64,000 nt of DNA from Eggerthella lenta DSM 2243 (GTDB lineage Bacteria; Actinomycetota; Coriobacteriia; Coriobacteriales; Eggerthellaceae), in contig NC_013204.1 in assembly GCF_000024265.1 (NCBI RefSeq), forward strand, positions 3,523,001 through 3,587,000. Direction: 5' to 3'. The position numbers and the translations under genes are program-made. The notes below the pieces were generated by a model. The model was not told the origin of the DNA, did not search any database, and worked only from the letters and a program-made list of their open reading frames with translations. This document shows positions 642 through 55,980 of this stretch, piece after piece (the stretch's first letter is position 1; each line of letters starts with the position of its first letter).

Positions 642-2577
642 ATGATCGAAACCATCGCCTCCTTCGACGGGCGCATCGCCAAGGTGCAAGGACCTGCGCG
701 AAGCGGCAAGACCGAAGCGCTCGTTCGGCGTTGCGCCTGCCTCGTGCGCGGCGGCGCCGCCCCGGAAACCATCCTCGTGGAAACGTCGAGCGCCGCAGCG
801 GCTCAGGCGTTCCGCCGTCGGCTTCGCCGCGCGATCGGCCCCGACCTCCAACACGCCGCCGACGACGTGCATGTGCGCACCGCGCTCGAAACGTGCGTCG
901 CCGTGCTGGACGCGCCCGCCGCGCGCGCCGCCACCGGCCCGCGTGCCGCGCCTGTTGAACGATGCGGAGTACAACTTCTTCCTGGAGGATATGAAGACGC
1001 TCGGCCAGCCCATCCGCCGTTTGCGCAAAATGCTCGATTTCTTCTATCGCCAGATGAGCGACCTCGAGCCGCGCGACTCCTGGCTCGCAGGCGGCGAAGA
1101 GGAAGCCGTGCTGTCCCACCTCGAGCGCGTGCTGGCCTCACGCGGCGCCATGCTGGCGCAGGAAGCGCCCAGCCTGTGCGCCGCGTACCTGCGCAGCGAC
1201 GCGGGCGAGGGCGTGCGCGGCAGCTACGCCTACGTGCTGTGCGACGACTTCCAGAACATGAGCCGCGCCGAGCAGACGTGCCTGTGCCTGCTGGCCGACC
1301 GCCAGCTCATCGCGTGCGGCAACCCCAACCAGCAGCAGGCCGCGCGCGCGTCGTTCCCCTGCGCCGAGGGCTTCGTGCAGTTCGACGCTCGCCGCCGCGA
1401 CGTAGCCGTGTTCACGCTGTCCGGAGCGCACGGCAACCCCGCCATCGCCGCGTTCGCCGACGGGCTTTGCGACCAGGGCGACATGGATCCCGCCTTCAAA
1501 GCGGGCATCGCGAGCGACGCGCAGACGTCGGACGGCATCATGGCCGTCAAGTGGTCGACGCCGGAAGACGAGCTGGACGGCATCACGAAGTACCTGCGCA
1601 TTCTGCTCGACGGCGAAGAGGACCTGCACGAGAACCGCACGTGCGTGCTCGTGCCCAACAAGCGCTGGGCGCTCATGGCGCAGCAGGTGCTCAAGCAGCG
1701 CGGTTTCGCCGTGGCGCTGGCCGGAGCGTTCTCCCGTTTGGGCGGCGACCCGCGCGACAGCGCCCGCGCCCGCGCGCTCGTGGCGTACACGAAGCTCAAC
1801 CTGCTGGCCGATCCGCGCGACATGACGGCTTGGCGCAGCTGGTGCGGCTTCGACAACTACCTCACGAACAGCGATGCATGGGGCGGCTTGCAGGCTTTCG
1901 CTGAAAAGCGCGAGCTCACGCTCTACGACGCGCTCGCCCTGGCCGACCAGCTGGAAGACGAACCGTTCCTGCGCGCGCACGCCCTGGTCGAGCGCTGGCG
2001 CGCGGGCCAGAAGCTTATCGCCGCGAACGTCGGGCGCAAGGGCTTCGGCCTGCTGCAGGCCATCGGAGCCGACGGCCTGCCCGAGTTCGAGGAGACGGCG
2101 CGCGCCCTCGTGGGCGACGAGGATGCGGCAGCGGTGTTCGCCCTGCAGCGCGCCAACGTCACCGATCCCGCGCTGCCCGACGATCCTCACGTGCTGCACG
2201 TGGCCTCATACGGCGCCCTGTGCGGCGTCGAATACGACAACATCTTCGCCATCGCCGCCGTGGACGGCTTCATGCCGCGGCGCGATGCGTTCGAGGTGAT
2301 CAGCACCGAGGAAGACCGCGAGCGCATCATGAACGAAGAGCGCCGACTGTTCTGCAACAGCGTGTCGAAGGCCAGCAAACGCCTGGTCGTCTCCTATTTC
2401 AGCAAAGCGCCGCTCGAGCTTGCCGAGCGTGCCAAGATGCAGGTGGTGCGCGTGAAGGCCGAGGGCAACGGCCGCGTGGCCTCGGTGCGTCCCACCGCGT
2501 TTTTGGCCGAAGCGGGAAACGCCGCCCCCGTCACCACCGGCGGCCAAGCCCTCCTCGCCCAGCACGGGTTGAACTAG
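642..2577 (+). pseudogene. UvrD/PcrA-like superfamily 1 helicase, interrupted by a +1 frameshift near 915-945
   Basis: Starts at ATG 642 behind a good ribosome site (AAAAGGAG). The first frame carries the Walker A motif GPARSGKTEALVRR near residues 17-30. Around 915-945 the coding potential moves to another frame, which then carries the rest of an SF1 helicase: a motif II-like LCDDFQNMSRAEQ, a motif IV-like VLVPNKRWALMAQQ, a motif V-like HVASYGALCGVEYDNIFA, and a motif VI-like NEERRLFCNSVSKASKRL. Neither frame alone makes a complete helicase. The join needs one base skipped in a GC-rich run, so it is a real mutation, a sequencing error or, less likely, programmed frameshifting. The motifs are degenerate, suggesting an AddB- or UvrD-like accessory helicase rather than PcrA itself. 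Confidence 0.65.
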
Positions 2578-2661: not shown

Positions 2662-3603
2662 CTACGCAGGCTTTCCCTGCCGCATATCCTGCAGCAGCTC
2701 TTTCCGCAGCCGGTAGCGCTTCATCATCCAGCTCGCGTCGTTCGGCGGAAGGCGCTTTCCCGTCAGCTTCGCCACCGCACGCGCCGATTCGTCGAACTTC
2801 CGAGCATCGAAGAACTGGTCGGGCGTAATCGAGACCACCGTTACTCCCTGGGAAATCAGCGCGCTGCGACGAGCCGAATCCCGCGTCTCGGCCGCGTTGC
2901 CGCTGTGATGCTCGCCGCTGTCGTACTCGACGGCAACGTGCCGCTTTCGCCAATACAGGTCGCATTCGAAGCGTTCGCGCTGAACCAACCCCTTCGTCCG
3001 AACCTCGATGCACGCGTTGAGCTCGGGAAGGTCCAAGCCGTATCCGCCGATCATCCGCGACAAGCACAAGGCCATGACCAGGTTCGTCTCCATAGGAGAT
3101 GCCGACGAGTCCGCAATGAAGCGCAGCGCTCGCAGCGCCTTGTTCGACCCGATGCAGCCGCGCGACTTCTCGACGAAGCGCCTGAGCGAGCGCACGTCGG
3201 TCAAAGGCGTGCGTTTCCGAAAACCTCGCTTGTCGCCATCGTACGCATATCGCGAGCACAAGAGACAGCCATACCGAACAAGCTCGACCAGCGACAGCTC
3301 CGTCGCCATCTCCACGAAGGACCGCTCGGGCGAGCTGATGTACAGCCCGTCGCGCAACCGGACGAAAGATCCAGCCGGAAAACCGGCACTCCACACGTGG
3401 CACACGGGGCTGCCCGTCCGCACGCGATCGTTTGCCTGAGCGACCACGACGTGCAGCGGCACCCCAAACGCATCCAGCTCTCCATCCGTATCCCCCATAC
3501 GAACGCCGCAGATCGGATGGGCGCGCGACGGCGTGGGAACCGGCAACGCATCGCTCACGCGCCAGTACTCGTAGGCAGACCAATATCCGATGTATACGCT
3601 CAT
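2662..3603 (-). CDS. Hypothetical protein with a DUF559/Vsr-like nuclease-type C-terminal domain
   Basis: 313 residues from the ATG at 3603 (MSVYIGYWSAYEYW). Upstream in-frame codons run into a repeat element, so they are not used. The C-terminal part has the pattern of the DUF559 / very-short-patch-repair nuclease fold: an early Glu (SPMETNLVM), then CDLYWRKRHVAVEYD followed by a His pair (GEHH), and later VVSITPDQFFD. The N-terminal half resembles the middle of AbiEi-type proteins (GLYISSPERSFVEMA). A TATGCT box sits six bases before the ATG and no ribosome site is visible, so a leaderless message is possible. Nuclease activity is inferred only from the motif order. It may be a single-gene defence or toxin-like protein. 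Confidence 0.55.
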   Translation of the reverse strand: MSVYIGYWSAYEYWRVSDALPVPTPSRAHPICGVRMGDTDGELDAFGVPLHVVVAQANDRVRTGSPVCHVWSAGFPAGSFVRLRDGLYISSPERSFVEMATELSLVELVRYGCLLCSRYAYDGDKRGFRKRTPLTDVRSLRRFVEKSRGCIGSNKALRALRFIADSSASPMETNLVMALCLSRMIGGYGLDLPELNACIEVRTKGLVQRERFECDLYWRKRHVAVEYDSGEHHSGNAAETRDSARRSALISQGVTVVSITPDQFFDARKFDESARAVAKLTGKRLPPNDASWMMKRYRLRKELLQDMRQGKPA

Positions 3604-3679
3604 GGTTGCAGCATACCGGGCGAGCGGACGAATGGCTAGCCGTCTTTTGGGTCCCCGAATCCCAAAACGGGAAAAAGAG

Positions 3680-3854
3680 CCCTCCGTGCAAGTTTTTCGA
3701 CTTCGTGGCAAATACGGCAGAAGCCCACCTGGGGTTTTTCGTTCACAGTTCCGACAAGCACCCCCGCTTCATTCTCCATGGAACGAAAACGCCTGATGAA
3801 CGGGTTCCCGTTTTCGAAAGCCTTGCCACGAAGTCGAAAAATTTGCACGGAGGG
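3680..3854. repeat. Paired inverted-repeat element A (REPIN/MITE-like)
   Basis: The left arm at 3680-3711 and right arm at 3823-3854 are inverted copies matching at 31 of 32 bases. The shared core reads TTTTTCGACTTCGTGGCA. They enclose 111 bp without coding features. The core recurs as a second inverted pair near 8.4-8.55 kb with almost the same spacing. It lies between the nuclease-like gene and torD. No target-site duplication was recognised. Confidence 0.7.
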
Positions 3855-3868
3855 GCCCGAAAGGAACC

Positions 3869-3895
3869 CGGGCCCGCAGATCGTCTGCAGGCCCG
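3869..3895 (-). terminator. Hairpin downstream of torD
   Basis: A GGGCC/CGCAGA stem with loop TCG lies just past the torD stop codon. On the minus strand it is followed by a weak T-containing stretch. This is a probable transcription terminator. Confidence 0.4.
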
Positions 3896-3933
3896 GCGGG
3901 AGGGAGGCAATATCGAGAGGTTTCGGCAACCTA

Positions 3934-4614
3934 CTATGCGGCGACTTCCACACTGTCCAGCAGCTCGGCGAGGATGGACGCATCCTCCTCGGCGAAGCCC
4001 ATGGCAAGCTGGGCCAACCCCTGGTAGAACAACGTGCGCGAGAACAGCCGCATGTCGTTGGTCAATAGCGGAAGCCAGTTCAGCAGGTGGTCGTGCAGGA
4101 AGGTCCGCTGAGTGCGCAACTGCCCCACGGCCTCGTCCTCGTCGCCTGCCGCCAGCGCCTCGACCGCGCGCAGGCTCATGCGTTGCATGAACTCGAACTC
4201 CAGCGCCACGTGGTCCTCGCCCTCGTTCCATGCGCCGCGCTTCAAACCGTTCTCGCGCAGCGTCTGCAGCACTTCGGCGCGCGCCTCCTGCATCATCAGG
4301 CGACGTTCGGAGGTGTACACGCTCTCGTACGGATAGGCGGCCGAGTACGCGTTCACCCCGTGGCCGATGAACGTGCGCACGAAGTCGATGGCGAGCTCGG
4401 TGACGCTGTCGTCCCATGCGGTTTTCAGATAGTCGTACAGCAGATGGTACCCTTCGTCCACCTTCGCGTTGCCCGTAGCGGTGGGGAAGCGCATGGCTTG
4501 CAGCTCCCGCAAGGAGTCCGCGTCCACTTCCTCGCGGAACAAGTTTGCCAGCAGGCCGTACGTTTGAGCGCGCATGTTCATGAGCGCAACCAGGTCGACG
4601 GTTTCCTCAGACAT
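3934..4614 (-). CDS. torD: TorD/DmsD-family molybdoenzyme chaperone
   Basis: 226 residues from the ATG at 4614 (MSEETVDL), which has a strong ribosome site (GGAGGAG); an in-frame extension upstream has none. It is an all-helical protein of usual TorD length with the family pattern of an early helix (RAQTYGLLANLF), a central FVRTFIGHGVNAYSAAYPYESVY segment and a late EDHVALEFEFMQRM segment. TorD proteins bind the Tat leader and apo-form of a molybdopterin oxidoreductase during cofactor insertion and export. No reductase gene is adjacent, so its client is encoded elsewhere. It overlaps by 8 bp the upstream gene ending at 4607, so the two are translationally coupled. Confidence 0.8.
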   Translation of the reverse strand: MSEETVDLVALMNMRAQTYGLLANLFREEVDADSLRELQAMRFPTATGNAKVDEGYHLLYDYLKTAWDDSVTELAIDFVRTFIGHGVNAYSAAYPYESVYTSERRLMMQEARAEVLQTLRENGLKRGAWNEGEDHVALEFEFMQRMSLRAVEALAAGDEDEAVGQLRTQRTFLHDHLLNWLPLLTNDMRLFSRTLFYQGLAQLAMGFAEEDASILAELLDSVEVAA

Positions 4615-5434
4615 GGTTCTCCTCCTTCTTCGCAGCGGCGGCTGCTTCCACCGCAGGCAGCATCGCACGTCCCAGATCGGTCAGACGCCACGCGTGCTCG
4701 CTCCATTCCAGCGCATCGGTGCGCTCCAGCATGTCGATGAAATGGCCGCCGAAACGCCGCGGGCTCTTCACCTCGTCGAACGTGTCCACCAGGTCTTCTA
4801 TCTCGGGTTTCGTGCACGGGCGCTCGTCGACGGCGCGCATGACCGCGCGGTACACCTTCACGTAACGGCTGTCGCGATCGAGCACGATGTCGCGGAACGC
4901 AGAGCCCTGCGTCAGCCTCTCGTACAGCGCGCTTCCTTCTTCGGTAGTGCGCCACACAGGGTCGACGCGTTCTTTGATCTCGAGAAACGCAACGCCCGCC
5001 TCCACGTCCTCGTGCGGTTCGGCGGCTTCGGGCATCTCCAACGTCAAGGCGCCGGCACGTTCGAGCATGCGGCACAGCGTCATGGGCGCGTACACCGAGC
5101 GGTTGCTGGCCTGCGCCGCTTCCACGTGCTCGGCCACGCGGCTCGCCGCGCACCCGCCGCGGCACAACCCCATGATGCTCAGCAGCACGGGCCGGCGACC
5201 GGGGTTGTGATCCAGCAGCTCCAGCACGGCAGATTCCACGCCACCTTGGCGCTTGGGGGTGTACACGGCTTCGCGCTGCATGCTCTGGGGCATGTTGCGC
5301 ATGGTGGGATAGTCGACGGTATCAAGCGGGTTGTCGTCGTCCATGTCCTCCTGGTCGATCTCCAGATCGTCGGCCATCAGAGGATCGAACTCGTCGTCTA
5401 AGCCCAGCACGTCGTCAAACGATACGGTAGGCAT
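4607..5434 (-). CDS. Hypothetical protein with winged-helix-like segments, coupled to torD
   Basis: 275 residues from the second of two adjacent ATGs (5434), which is better spaced from GGAGG than the ATG at 5437. The first 60 residues are acidic. Two later segments have the look of winged-helix domains (ASRVAEHVEAAQASNRSVYAPMT, and CTKPEIEDLVDTFDEVKS through LERTDALEWSEHAWRLTDLG). This suggests a DNA-binding or scaffold role, but the family is not recognised. The 8-bp overlap with torD suggests a shared job in molybdoenzyme maturation or its control; that is inference only. Confidence 0.6.
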   Translation of the reverse strand: MPTVSFDDVLGLDDEFDPLMADDLEIDQEDMDDDNPLDTVDYPTMRNMPQSMQREAVYTPKRQGGVESAVLELLDHNPGRRPVLLSIMGLCRGGCAASRVAEHVEAAQASNRSVYAPMTLCRMLERAGALTLEMPEAAEPHEDVEAGVAFLEIKERVDPVWRTTEEGSALYERLTQGSAFRDIVLDRDSRYVKVYRAVMRAVDERPCTKPEIEDLVDTFDEVKSPRRFGGHFIDMLERTDALEWSEHAWRLTDLGRAMLPAVEAAAAAKKEENHV

Positions 5435-5634
5435 CATTCCTCCTTCTTCTCTCTTCGCTGCGTTCGAGTATAGGGGCTGCGCGCGACGGCTCATCATCCT
5501 ACAAGGCGTAATTACGCAGGGATTCGCGCGCATCATACGCCGGGGCCGCGAAATCACCTTGACGCGCGCTTCGCCGGCTCCCTATAATCGGGGCGCGTTG
5601 CGAGAAGCGGGGCTTCTTAGGAAAGGAAGCTCCA

Positions 5635-6096
5635 ATGGCCAACGTAGCTTGGGGCAAGAAGATTCTTGCCGTTGCGGTTCTGAGCTGCCTGTGCGCCTCG
5701 ATCGCGGTTCCTGCCTATGCGTTCTACTACGTCCACGGCGAAGAGAACGTTGCTGCAACCAGCAAGGGCGTCATCGAGGTCACGTGCACGGTGGACGAAA
5801 CCGCTCAGGGCGGAGGCGTGAAGACCTCGCTCATCATCGTTCCCGAAGGCAGCACCGCCGCTGCTTGCCTGGACGAGAGCGTGGTTTCCAGCAACAGTCA
5901 GAACGGCCTTGCGGCCATTCACGACTACAGCGTCTCCAGCTTGGCGGACGAGCTGTCCGGCAAGCAGTACACGTGCACGGTGCACAAGGCCGACAGCCAG
6001 AAGCCGGGCACGCACACCGCGTTCGACGGAAGCGGCACCGAGGGCGAGAGCACGCCGCTCGAGCGCTTCGACAGCGTGGTGTTCACGGTGGCGTAA
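5635..6096 (+). CDS. Small exported protein of unknown function
   Basis: 153 residues with a clear Sec signal peptide: WGKKILAVAVLSCLCASIAVPAYA, with likely cleavage after AYA. The mature part is about 125 residues, polar, and contains three cysteines (VTCTVDE, AACLDES, YTCTVHK). The two repeated TCTV strands suggest a small beta-rich secreted domain, possibly disulfide linked. The ribosome site AGGAAAG precedes the ATG. It stands alone between a divergent operon and a regulator gene. No function is recognised. Confidence 0.65.
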   Translation: MANVAWGKKILAVAVLSCLCASIAVPAYAFYYVHGEENVAATSKGVIEVTCTVDETAQGGGVKTSLIIVPEGSTAAACLDESVVSSNSQNGLAAIHDYSVSSLADELSGKQYTCTVHKADSQKPGTHTAFDGSGTEGESTPLERFDSVVFTVA

Positions 6097-6392
6097 TCCG
6101 CCGCGCGGGGGTTCGGACGACCAGCCGGGCCCCCGCACACCTCCCGTTCCGGCTCGGCAAGCGCCCCGTTATTCTTCACAAGCCGGCCCGATGCAGCACC
6201 GCGACGCCTCAGCACGCCCTCGAAAGCAGACGGGCGCCCTTCCGAACATCATCCTCAGAGGATTATTTTTCTATTACCCCAGATCAAACGTTTGCGCATC
6301 GAGCGCAAAACCCTGATCGACTCGCTCACCTCGCTAGAAAAAACAACCTCTGCACGGTATGATGATGCCCAGGGAATCAAGGAGGGGGCTTC
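6097..6392. other. Gap without genes before the LuxR regulator
   Basis: About 300 bases with no convincing coding frame. The last 150 bases are AT-richer than the surroundings and probably hold the promoter of the regulator at 6393, whose ATG has the ribosome site GGAGGGGG. Confidence 0.4.
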
Positions 6393-8102
6393 ATGGGGAT
6401 TCGCGTTCCTCGCATCACCGTCAACGCCGACTTCGGCGACGACACCGCGTTCGGCGACCTGAGCTTGCTCTCGGTGGGCTACGGACTGCACCAGGCTTGG
6501 GTGTACGCCGTCATGTTCGGAACGCCCACCATCTTCGGCACGCAAACCTACGTCACCGGCATGTACGGCAGCCACGCGTCGCTGCCGTTCCTCGTCTCCA
6601 TCGTCGTGTTCGGGCTGTGCCTGTTGTTCGCCGGCATCACCGACCAGCGGCTGTTGAGGACGTACATCTCGAAGAAGACGCTTGCGGCGGGCGCGGCGCT
6701 CATGTCGGCCGGAACGTTGCTGCTGCTTGCGACGCCCGTGATCAGCGGCCCGGCGCTGGAAGCGGTATCGGGCGTCATGACGGGCATCGGCTCCGCCATC
6801 CTGATTCTGTTCTGGGGCGTCGCGTTCGCGCGCTGCGACAGCGCTTCCATCGTGCTGAACTCGTCCATCGCCATCTCCATCGCCATCGGGGTGTACGCCA
6901 TCGGCCTGCATTACGGGCCGTTCCCCATCGCCGGCATCCTCGCGGGCATCATCCCGCTGCTGGAGCTCGCCATCCTCTGGAACAAAACGCCGGCGCCGTA
7001 TTCCGAGCGCAACGAGGTTCCCATCTTCAAACCGCTTCCGGTGAACCATGCCAAGTTCTTCCTGCGCTTCGGCATTCCCGTGTTCGTGTTCGGCGTGGCG
7101 TTGGGCACGCTGCGGCAAACGTCCATCCAGTACATCGTGCCCGCCTCGAACGTAGGCGACCAGATCGCCATGCTGCTGGCCGCCGGATTCGCCTCCGTAG
7201 TCATCCTCGTGACCATCGTGGCCCTTGGCGGCGGCGACAAATGGAGCCGGTACTTCCGCCCGCTCGTCCCCTTCATCGCCGTCACGCTGTTCTTCCTGCC
7301 GCTTTCCGAAATGAGCGACAACACGTTCGCCACCATGTTCTTGGTGATGGGCTACCTGTGCTTCGAGGCGCTGATGTGGATATTCTTCGGCGAGCTGGCG
7401 CAACGCTTCCGCTTGTCGCCCATCTACGTGTTCGGCCTGGGACGCGGCATGTTGGCGCTGGCGGGGCTGGCGGGTTCGCTGTTTCCCATCGTGGCGGCGA
7501 ACTGGGTGCATCTGCTTCCGTTCGGCGAACAGGGCGTCATCGTCATCGTGCTGCTGATTATGGTGGTGGCATACGCGCTGCTGCCGCGCGAGCGCGAGAT
7601 CGAGGCCATCGTCGCACCGTGTCCGCTGGTGAAAGCCGTGTCGTTGGAATTGAGCGACCGCGTGCGGCCGCTAGGGCAAGCGGGATCGGCCGGCGAGGGA
7701 GCCGCCGCGGCCGCGCAATCTGGAAACAACGCGACGGCAGCGACCAACGCGCCTGCACCTGACGCCGAGATCGCGCCCGAACCCGAACCGACCGCGCGGC
7801 GCGCCCCTTCGCTGCTGGAACTCAGCAGCGCACGCCGAGCAGACGAGGGCGAAGAGCGAAAGGGAGGCGGCCGCTTCCGCGCGAAGTGCGAGACGGTTGC
7901 CAACACCTACCTGCTTTCCCGGCGCGAGACGGAGATCATGTTCTTTCTGGCGAAGGGGCACAACGCCGCGTACATCCAGGAAAAGCTCTACATCTCGGAA
8001 GGCACCGCGAAAACCCACATCCGCCACGTCTACAAGAAGACGAACGTCCACAGCCAGCAGGAGCTCATGCGCCTCGTCGAGCTTGCGGATCCCGCCGAAT
8101 AG
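6393..8102 (+). CDS. LuxR-family regulator with a 12-helix MFS-like membrane domain
   Basis: 569 residues. Roughly residues 25-405 form about twelve hydrophobic helices arranged like a major facilitator protein. An Ala/Pro-rich linker follows (about 410-500), and then a C-terminal LuxR-type helix-turn-helix (LLSRRETEIMFFLAKGHNAAYIQ, then SEGTAKTHIRHVYKKTNV). Membrane-bound LuxR regulators of this layout are abundant in Eggerthellaceae and are thought to sense a small molecule through the transporter-like half. The gene stands alone and its target is not obvious; the upstream exported protein is a possible one. Identification of the two domains is firm; ligand and targets are unknown. Confidence 0.85.
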   Translation: MGIRVPRITVNADFGDDTAFGDLSLLSVGYGLHQAWVYAVMFGTPTIFGTQTYVTGMYGSHASLPFLVSIVVFGLCLLFAGITDQRLLRTYISKKTLAAGAALMSAGTLLLLATPVISGPALEAVSGVMTGIGSAILILFWGVAFARCDSASIVLNSSIAISIAIGVYAIGLHYGPFPIAGILAGIIPLLELAILWNKTPAPYSERNEVPIFKPLPVNHAKFFLRFGIPVFVFGVALGTLRQTSIQYIVPASNVGDQIAMLLAAGFASVVILVTIVALGGGDKWSRYFRPLVPFIAVTLFFLPLSEMSDNTFATMFLVMGYLCFEALMWIFFGELAQRFRLSPIYVFGLGRGMLALAGLAGSLFPIVAANWVHLLPFGEQGVIVIVLLIMVVAYALLPREREIEAIVAPCPLVKAVSLELSDRVRPLGQAGSAGEGAAAAAQSGNNATAATNAPAPDAEIAPEPEPTARRAPSLLELSSARRADEGEERKGGGRFRAKCETVANTYLLSRRETEIMFFLAKGHNAAYIQEKLYISEGTAKTHIRHVYKKTNVHSQQELMRLVELADPAE

Positions 8103-8388
8103 CGAGCTTGCCCCTCGCCGATTGCAGCGCGCGGCCTCCGCGACCGCTCGCAAATCCCGCGTTCCGTGCACAAACCTGGTCGTCGATCCGCAGGCGCGTT
8201 CGCACGATCTCGACACGCTCGCGCGGTTGCACGGCGTTCCCCTTCGCCGTCGTGCAGTTCGCGACGCAAGGTTTGCCTCACCCCAGCTCCCGCTGAAACG
8301 CCAGGCGCCTTCGCGCTCGCACAACCGCACGACATCCCTTGCAGCTACGCCGTCAACGCGAGCAAGAAACGGTTTTCGAGGGCGCTTC

Positions 8389-8549
8389 TGCAAATTTTTC
8401 GACCTTGTGGCAACGCCTCTTATTCATGAGATGTTCTGACCAGGCTTTTCTCCGCATCTCAAAAGCGCACGCACTACCGTGACAAATCGGCGAACACCTC
8501 GACCAGGGAAAACGATTGCCGCGCGTGCCACGAAGTCGAAAAACTTACA
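8389..8549. repeat. Paired inverted-repeat element B (same family as 3680-3854)
   Basis: The left arm at 8389-8413 and right arm at 8526-8549 are inverted, with about 20 of 24 positions matching. Both share the TTTTTCGAC...GTGGCA core with element A. The 112-bp interior is unrelated in sequence to that of element A but almost identical in length. Confidence 0.6.
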
Positions 8550-8670
8550 AATACGGGTCGTATTTCCGCTTTGGGTACGCAACCGACCGTCGACGCGCGA
8601 CTACGAGGGAGAAACGCAAGCTCGCACCACGGCGCAACGAGCGCGCAAATTCGTCAGCAACCTCGCGTAG

Positions 8671-55304: not shown

Positions 55305-55980
55305 CTCGCCCGAACACGAAATGCATGTAAAGCCTCCCCGAACAAAACCCGTGCCGTCCTGATACGACGACGAGCACATACAGCACGGACGACCTGCACA
55401 GCAACGGACGACCCATCCGCCTCTATTTTCCTTCGCCAAATGCGATGCCGGTCATCCGACGAGGCCTCCGATGGCAAAAAAGCATCGAATTCGGAAGCCC
55501 GGAGTCGTGCCTTACACGCGCCGACGTCACGCCGAAAACGCTCGCCGCACAGAGCACCAGGTTACAGGCGAGACCCCTTTCGCCTTCGCGCGAAAAGTTT
55601 GCCCGAAAGACGGGATGATTTCCGAATTCGGTTGCTTTTTGCCATTTCGAGCGAGCAGGCTGACTAAGGCGCCCGCAAAGGAAGGCAATCCCGAGCATGA
55701 TGCGCCAAGCAAGGAACCGAAACTGTTGTTTCGCATGCAGAAACCGAGGAAGGCATGCTCCGAGGGCGAGGGGCGGACCGAGAGGCGAAGGAGAAGGCGC
55801 ACAGGCGCAACGGGCGCACGTCGCGCAAAATGACTCCGAAAGCAGCACAGGCCGCGGGGGGAAGCGGCCTGTGCTTGGACGAGTGAAACGAGGAGAACCG
55901 TTGGAGTCGGTGTGTCCACGAGTCATACTTTACGACGTTTATTATCCTGTGTCAAGAATAATATTCCTGCCTTTTCCGAA

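What the first reader, a model, noticed from the sequence alone, without database searches (positions are those of the whole stretch)
3680..8549. Two paired inverted-repeat elements with constant spacing (REPIN/MITE-like family)
Element A (3680-3711 / 3823-3854) and element B (8389-8413 / 8526-8549) use the same arm motif, TTTTTCGACTTCGTGGCA, facing inward in each case. The interiors are unrelated in sequence but 111 and 112 bp long. Conserved arms with conserved geometry and free interior sequence resemble REPIN pairs, or sites for a protein or RNA acting across a fixed distance. I know of no named element with this arm.
Basis: seen in the sequence. Interest (0 to 1): 0.75.

Follow-up and report, generated by a model that had tools for sequence, protein, structure and literature searches.

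The report
Nuclease-linked palindromes in helical register
The two paired repeats belong to a large set of short palindromic DNA elements, each family matched to its own copy of a nuclease-like gene and built with spacings that jump by one turn of the DNA helix, which points to an undescribed kind of mobile or DNA-bridging system in gut bacteria of the Eggerthella group.

Summary
The arm forms 8 facing pairs in this genome and 28 in three genomes of the genus. The interiors are not unrelated: most hold a CCWGG..TTTT box at a fixed distance from an arm. Beside element A lies a 313-aa protein (2662-3603, minus) with weak Vsr/DUF559/REase-type similarity. Its homologs sit next to such palindromes: 59 of 70 loci, then 16 of 25 further loci; in the same loci no palindrome lies farther than 700 bp from the gene. 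Arms differ by paralog and co-diverge with the protein (Mantel r 0.54, 0 of 1000 permutations). Several arm families are dispersed as facing pairs. In four families 78 of 98 elements are within 2.5 bp of the modal length and 19 of the other 20 are 9-12 bp off, one helical turn; box distances also jump by 10 bp. This points to duplex DNA, not hairpins. No Y1 (RAYT-type) transposase was found in this genome. Best reading: a REPIN/RAYT-like two-component system built on an unrelated nuclease. Binding, cutting and movement are inferred.

The parts
2662..3603 (-). Putative cognate nuclease-like gene, 313 aa; E172, D215, E226 and Y227 invariant, D228 and H233 nearly invariant, in an alignment of 40
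   Evidence: ortholog flanked by elements on both sides in G052 and G054
3680..3711 (+). Element A, left arm (core TGCAAGTTTTTCGACTTCGTGGCA at 3687-3710)
3728..3739 (+). Element A, inner box CCTGGGGTTTTT, 17 nt inside the left arm core
3786..3799 (-). Element A, second, weaker box (TCATCAGGCGTTTT on the minus strand), long side
3823..3854 (-). Element A, right arm (core 3824-3847)
3661..3873 (.). Element A, full extent as used in the half-element model (weaker outer motif included)
8389..8412 (+). Element B, left arm
8440..8449 (+). Element B, inner box CCAGGCTTTT, 27 nt inside the left arm
8503..8512 (-). Element B, second CCWGG box (CCAGGGAAAA on the plus strand)
8526..8549 (-). Element B, right arm
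8363..8575 (.). Element B, full extent as used in the half-element model

Best explanation
A and B are dispersed copies of a short palindromic element whose cognate protein is the nuclease-like gene at 2662-3603. I propose that the protein (Vsr/DUF559/EDxHD-like catalytic part plus a family-specific DNA-binding part) acts as a dimer or higher multimer on duplex DNA. It would hold both arms at once across a loop of about 120-160 bp, with its catalytic part at the CCWGG..TTTT box shared by the families. Cutting and break repair would copy the element to new intergenic places and keep its two arms alike. The system works like REPIN-RAYT: one gene, often flanked by its palindromes, acting in trans on many short copies, with several independent gene/arm families per genome. 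Shown: gene-palindrome linkage, arm-protein co-divergence, dispersal as facing pairs, helical quantisation, a shared phased box, and presence/absence between species. Inferred: binding, looping, cleavage, mobility.
For: Linkage: 59 of 70 homolog loci carry a palindrome within 320 bp, 11 on both sides, against 1 of 64 mock genes in control chunks; 16 of 25 further loci. Within the same loci, 70 and 20 palindromes lie near the gene (77 and 28 kb) and 0 and 0 lie more than 700 bp away (105 and 39 kb). Co-divergence: Mantel r 0.535, 0 of 1000 permutations, n=54; r 0.26 for pairs under 60% identity, not permuted. The G020 homolog (57% identity) has arms sharing TGCANNTTTTTCGA but not the inner half. 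Dispersal: arms of six other paralogs gave 67, 38 and 57 hits in G000, G052 and G054 and 0 in G053; at least 106 of these 162 hits form facing pairs (53 pairs). Quantised sizes: family 190 139-140/150-152/161-162, main 138-139/148-152, family 188 156-158/167-168 plus 146 and 149; 19 of the 20 off-mode elements are 9-12 bp off. Box-arm distance: main 17 (x17), 27 (x10), 28 (x1); family 188 38 (x5), 48 (x3), 7 (x1); family 189 23-24 (17 of 17); family 190 46 (23 of 28). Nuclease similarity: MTES_1575 in 5 of 6 members, best E 8.9e-6; PDB 3r3p E 6.7e-4. Arms of one element match each other better than arms of different elements, 0 of 2000 permutations in all four families.
Against: No target-site duplication or clean insertion junction was found. 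One presence/absence difference is a loss in G000, a deletion between CGTTT repeats. The nuclease matches are weak: the window protein is under the Pfam cut-offs, and with the 40-sequence profile the PDB match falls to E 0.0061. 11 of 70 and 9 of 25 homolog loci show no palindrome at the loosest threshold. The strict box is in only 11 of 57 gene-adjacent elements outside Eggerthella (shuffle mean 1.1, maximum 5). Many repeat loci of other genera gave no homolog within 1.5 kb. Copies and orthologs are not independent, so a length class may reflect a few ancestral events. I did not show that each family's gene is present in every genome that holds its copies: I fetched 8 of 13, 7 of 11 and 9 of 14 scored homologs of G000, G052 and G054, and saw family 190's gene only in G000.
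Confidence: 0.58

Rival explanations
1. The palindromes are operator or chromosome-architecture sites: the cognate protein binds both arms, loops DNA and regulates or insulates neighbouring genes, with no mobility and perhaps no nuclease activity.
For: Helical phasing fits looping by any protein. Arms are kept while interiors diverge at orthologous places. 26 of 28 main-family elements lie in the origin-proximal half of the chromosome (worked out by hand and dnaA; G054 C2 taken as a circle).
Against: Copies are dispersed and differ in place between related species. In crude gene of 28 main elements lie between convergent genes, 8 between tandem and 0 between divergent ones (17, 11 and 0 once the nuclease gene, which the caller misses, is counted by hand), so not at promoters in general. 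Catalytic-type residues are kept in 40 sequences.
Confidence: 0.22
2. Ordinary MITEs mobilised by a conventional transposase elsewhere in the genome; the nuclease genes are passengers or hosts of insertions.
For: Size, terminal inverted repeats and intergenic dispersal are MITE-like.
Against: In the arm lists of the three genomes I saw no pair that would frame a longer element, other than the two palindromes around the nuclease gene itself in G052 and G054. No clear target duplication. Arms track the nuclease family, and distinct arms sit beside distinct paralogs.
Confidence: 0.08
3. A structured RNA or bidirectional 3'-end hairpin, ERIC/NEMIS-like, selected at the transcript level.
For: Long inverted arms with matched left/right changes; most main-family copies lie between convergent genes in crude calls. 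ERIC and NEMIS are recalled comparisons.
Against: One-turn quantisation of length and box position is a duplex-DNA signature. In the few arm mismatches that I read by hand, the base change falls on either side of the inner asymmetry, so no strand is favoured for G-U pairs. No Rfam match in the window except two tRNAs.
Confidence: 0.07
4. Paired evolution of the arms comes only from replication-template quasipalindrome correction; the elements are decaying relics with no present function.
For: Left and right arms are more alike within an element than between elements.
Against: Correction does not explain fixed box distance, length quantisation, or arm identity across species while interiors diverge.
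Confidence: 0.05

Closest known systems
REPIN / RAYT (REP-associated tyrosine transposase, TnpAREP)
   Same: A protein gene flanked by inverted palindromes, with many short dispersed copies in intergenic DNA, and different repeat classes matched to different proteins of one genome (PMC2817692 and PMC3116915, passages read).
   Different: No Y1 transposase gene in this genome; no REP-type head and short GC-rich palindrome in the arms (by eye); length is quantised by helical turn, pointing to duplex DNA rather than the ssDNA or mRNA hairpin proposed for REPINs; a shared CCWGG..TTTT box lies inside.
EDxHD homing endonucleases (I-Bth0305I)
   Same: Best PDB sequence match is 3r3p 'mobile intron protein' (E 6.7e-4; that it is I-Bth0305I is recalled). 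I-Bth0305I is reported to dimerise on a target near 60 bp (PMC3943268, passages read).
   Different: No intron or homing allele was seen; targets would be dispersed palindromes with arms 120-160 bp end to end; similarity is weak.
Vsr / DUF559 / REase_MTES_1575 nucleases
   Same: Weak matches of the C-terminal part; CCWGG recalls the Dcm/Vsr site (recalled).
   Different: Match covers only residues 207-268 of the window protein, under the curated cut-offs; linked palindromes are not part of those families as far as I know.
Bacterial MITEs (Correia/NEMIS, ERIC, RUP; recalled)
   Same: Short, palindromic, intergenic, multi-copy.
   Different: No target duplication seen; linked nuclease-like gene; helical size classes; inner box.

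Membership tests
REPIN/RAYT | Y1 tyrosine (IS200/IS605-like) transposase in the genome | tested here: not met
   PF01797: 0 matches in the window's own genome; it rings in 5 of 14 control genomes. Other genomes were not searched for it
REPIN/RAYT | Protein gene flanked by two of its palindromes | tested here: inconclusive
   With another protein: a palindrome within 320 bp in 59 of 70 loci, both sides in 11 of 70
REPIN/RAYT | GT(A/G)G head followed by a short GC-rich palindrome | tested here: not met
   By eye: the main arm ends in GTGGCA, but no short palindrome follows; arms of families 188, 189 and 190 show no such unit
REPIN/RAYT | Inverted pairs as the repeated unit | tested here: met
   28 main pairs and 53 pairs of other families; mobility itself not tested
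MITE | Target-site duplication | tested here: inconclusive
   None clear at seven sites compared, but most empty sites were diverged
MITE | Autonomous parent transposon with the same ends | tested here: inconclusive
   None seen in the arm lists of G000, G052 and G054; other families' arms and other genomes not checked for it
EDxHD/Vsr-like nuclease | Catalytic-domain sequence match and conserved acidic residues | tested here: inconclusive
   Weak matches; E172, D215, E226 invariant, H233 nearly invariant in 40 sequences
EDxHD/Vsr-like nuclease | Fold | not testable with these tools
EDxHD/Vsr-like nuclease | DNA cleavage activity | not testable with these tools
   Needs a bench assay

The most novel reading that the evidence does not exclude
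A new class of two-component mobile DNA in Coriobacteriales: many paralogous Vsr-like nucleases per genome, each bridging the two arms of its own palindromes in helical register across a duplex loop and cutting at a shared CCWGG box to spread them. Length classes one helical turn apart would be a natural record of the looping constraint on movement.
Probability: 0.5. Interest if true: 0.92.

Novelty: categorically new. Interest (0 to 1): 0.85.

Why it matters
If true, a gene family found in 109 of 137 genomes of this bacterial family runs its own dispersed repeats. It would be a second, independent solution to what RAYTs do, with a different enzyme and duplex rather than single-stranded DNA. 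Many cognate protein-arm pairs within one genome would make a ready set for learning how a DNA-binding part changes specificity, and the helical size classes give a direct, testable signature of protein bridging on short DNA.

Tried and rejected
Element A had no relative in the phage or plasmid records. The arm in viral contigs gave 2 single hits, not followed; the nuclease-like family gave no confirmed relative there. Genome contigs gave 9 single exact hits in distant taxa, taken as chance and not followed. Rfam: nothing at the elements. RAYT: rejected for this genome. PADLOC and NCBIfam: only weak single-member hits. Target duplications: looked for at seven sites, none clear. An outer-palindrome hairpin idea was dropped; outside the arm, left-right likeness holds only in the main family. 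A simple power scan over all families could not tell a 10.5-bp period from 10-12 bp; the claim rests on within-family steps.

Rows dropped: I entered 118 of the 162 hits (its list was itself cut; hits without a visible partner were mostly left out), and one of the 54 pairings, 200 bp, is a mis-pairing with an extra arm. In one search the 136-bp 'main' element in L130 is from G058, another genus, and is left out of the 98. Several hits look like chance matches and were not followed.
Full report
Observation. The arms of A and B are confirmed by an independent repeat search. In the whole genome (3,632,260 bases, one contig) the arm with up to 3 mismatches gives 21 hits: 16 make 8 facing pairs, one is a lone arm at 640692, and 4 are three-mismatch hits taken as background. 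Among 138 genomes of the family, facing pairs of this 18-mer were seen only in three genomes of the genus (G000, G052, G054) and not in the fourth (G053). I collected 28 pairs: 8, 6 and 14.

Anatomy. Outer sizes of the 28 are 148-152 bp (23) or 138-139 bp (5). The arm core is near invariant, partly because it was the search key; a weak outer motif extends about 30 bp outward. The interior has a CCWGG-type box reading inward. In the longer class its C of CAGG lies about 18 nt from one arm and 28 nt from the other, with the element in either orientation. A and B are thus related and lie in opposite orientation. A half-element model re-found these and showed distant relatives in other genera whose arms keep TGCANNTTTTTCGA but differ further in.

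The partner gene. The gene at 2662-3603 (minus) lies beside A; in G052 and G054 its ortholog has an element on each side. A tblastn of its product against all loci then in hand, many of them fetched for their repeats, hit homologs right next to elements in G020, G067, G400 and G033; many other repeat loci, with only about 1.5 kb on each side, gave none. Profile search found homologs in 109 of 137 family genomes, with many paralogs each; at most 16 candidates per genome were scored. I took 70 homolog loci: 30 given by the tool and 40 that I asked for by place from nine genomes. At the loosest threshold 59 of 70 have a palindrome within 320 bp of the gene, 11 on both sides; 52 and 49 at stricter thresholds. 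In 64 control chunks of similar size, all from G000, G052 and G054, 4 held any such palindrome and 1 near a mock gene end. A second set of 25 loci gave 16 of 25, of which 12 of 20 in two other families of the order. As a control inside the same loci, I counted palindromes by distance: 70 near the gene in 77 kb and 0 beyond 700 bp in 105 kb for the first set; 20 in 28 kb and 0 in 39 kb for the second. The loci include orthologs and are not all independent. In a phylum-wide search, scoring 5 candidates per genome, 34 of 376 genomes had homologs, 30 of them in three families of the same order.

Each paralog has its own arms. Arm similarity follows protein similarity (Mantel r 0.535, 0 of 1000 permutations, 54 loci; 0.26 when pairs at or above 60% identity are left out, not permuted). 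Arms of six other paralogs of this genome, searched in the four genus genomes, gave 67, 38, 0 and 57 hits in G000, G052, G053 and G054. Pairing 118 of these hits gave 53 facing pairs after one mis-pairing is removed. G053 lacked hits for all seven arm families searched and has two homologs, not close to the window gene; the one whose flanks I fetched has no palindrome (L223).

Helical register. I gathered 107 distinct elements. In the four larger families, leaving out L130 which belongs elsewhere, 78 of 98 are within 2.5 bp of the family mode, 19 are 9-12 bp away and 1 is 8 bp away. Examples: family 190 at 139-140, 150-152 and 161-162; family 188 at 156-158 and 167-168 plus 146 and 149; family 189 at 119-121. 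Two pairs of elements agree: 139/149 and 118/129. The strict box was found in 24 of 29, 8 of 12, 17 of 20 and 27 of 38 elements of the main, 188, 189 and 190 families. Its distance to the arm behind it is 17 (17 times), 27 (10) or 28 (1); 38 (5), 48 (3) and 7 (1); 23 (4) or 24 (13); and 46 (23) with single cases at 27, 35, 45, 56 and 74. Jumps of 10-11 bp almost without values between are expected if both arms and the box must face the same side of duplex DNA. Length classes may stem from few ancestral events within a family, but the same step recurs in several unrelated arm families.

The box in general. Among gene-adjacent elements, 19 of 25 in Eggerthella and 11 of 57 in other genera hold the strict box; shuffled interiors gave means of 0.5 and 1.1 and maxima of 3 and 5 in 200 rounds.

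Arms evolve in pairs. Left and right arms of one element are more alike than arms of different elements in all four families (0 of 2000 permutations each). This would fit break repair, gene conversion or quasipalindrome correction, and partly shared descent.

Gain and loss. The intergenic stretches holding B, the 29.6-kb element, a family-188 and a family-189 element in G000 are much shorter and lack the element in G052 (711 against 111 bp for B). At a family-190 site of G054 the 204 bp that hold the element correspond to 17 bp in G053. The second element beside the nuclease gene is absent in G000. In one case the difference is a loss: G000 has a deletion between CGTTT repeats that leaves half an arm. 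I found no clear target duplication.

The protein. It matches REase_MTES_1575 (5 of 6 family members, best E 8.9e-6) and DUF559 (5 of 6, best 0.002), the window protein itself under both curated cut-offs; a Vsr model in one member at 0.047; and the PDB chain 3r3p at 6.7e-4, or 0.0061 with 40 sequences. In the alignment of 40, E172, D215, W218, E226, Y227, D242 and R245 are invariant and D228 and H233 nearly so. A metal-dependent nuclease site is likely but unproven.

Mechanism. The parts point to a protein bridging two arms across a short duplex loop while its catalytic part meets the box. [quoted passage not shown] An EDxHD enzyme is reported to dimerise on a target near 60 bp (passages of PMC3943268), which makes long paired targets plausible. 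That transposition between close ends depends on helical phase in IS50 is recalled, not checked.

Novelty. Ten full-text searches of an open-access library listed no paper that I could see describing palindromes linked to this nuclease family; I saw listings and starts of abstracts, and passages of three papers. Papers of subscription journals are mostly not in that library.

Noticed in passing
window 55471-55645: A third palindrome (arm ATGGCAAAAAAGCATCGAATTCGGAA, score 16) with an ACCAGG box inside, possibly a dispersed copy of another arm family.
   Followed up: partly
window 642-2577, plus strand: The UvrD-like gene beside the nuclease gene appears in two overlapping frames here, while G052 and G054 have one open frame of about 645 aa: a likely frameshift.
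   Followed up: no
G000, G052, G054 chromosomes: 26 of 28 main-family elements lie in the origin-proximal half of the chromosome (by hand and dnaA); family-190 elements look more widely spread. Not explained.
   Followed up: partly
L074 about 4888-4903 (G000 near 29.5 kb): A parS-like TGTTTCACGTGAAACA (name recalled) lies about 90 bp from a main-family element; also present in G052 without the element.
   Followed up: no
L147 (G054 C2:626995-627120): A second TTTTTCGA-type palindrome with inner arm TACNGTACGA, 126 bp, in the same genome as the main family.
   Followed up: no
L152 (G128 C131): Overlapping palindromes of 124 bp with arm TTTTTCGATTGTGGCTCC; 10 pattern matches in that genome.
   Followed up: no
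L122 (G367, family f3): Four palindromes of 136-137 bp with arms close to TTTTTCGATTTTGCRCGATTG in a genome of another family of the order.
   Followed up: no
L072 near 8900 and L071 near 12480: A further short repeat, AGACAAAGGGACGG...GTCTC, close to two elements.
   Followed up: no
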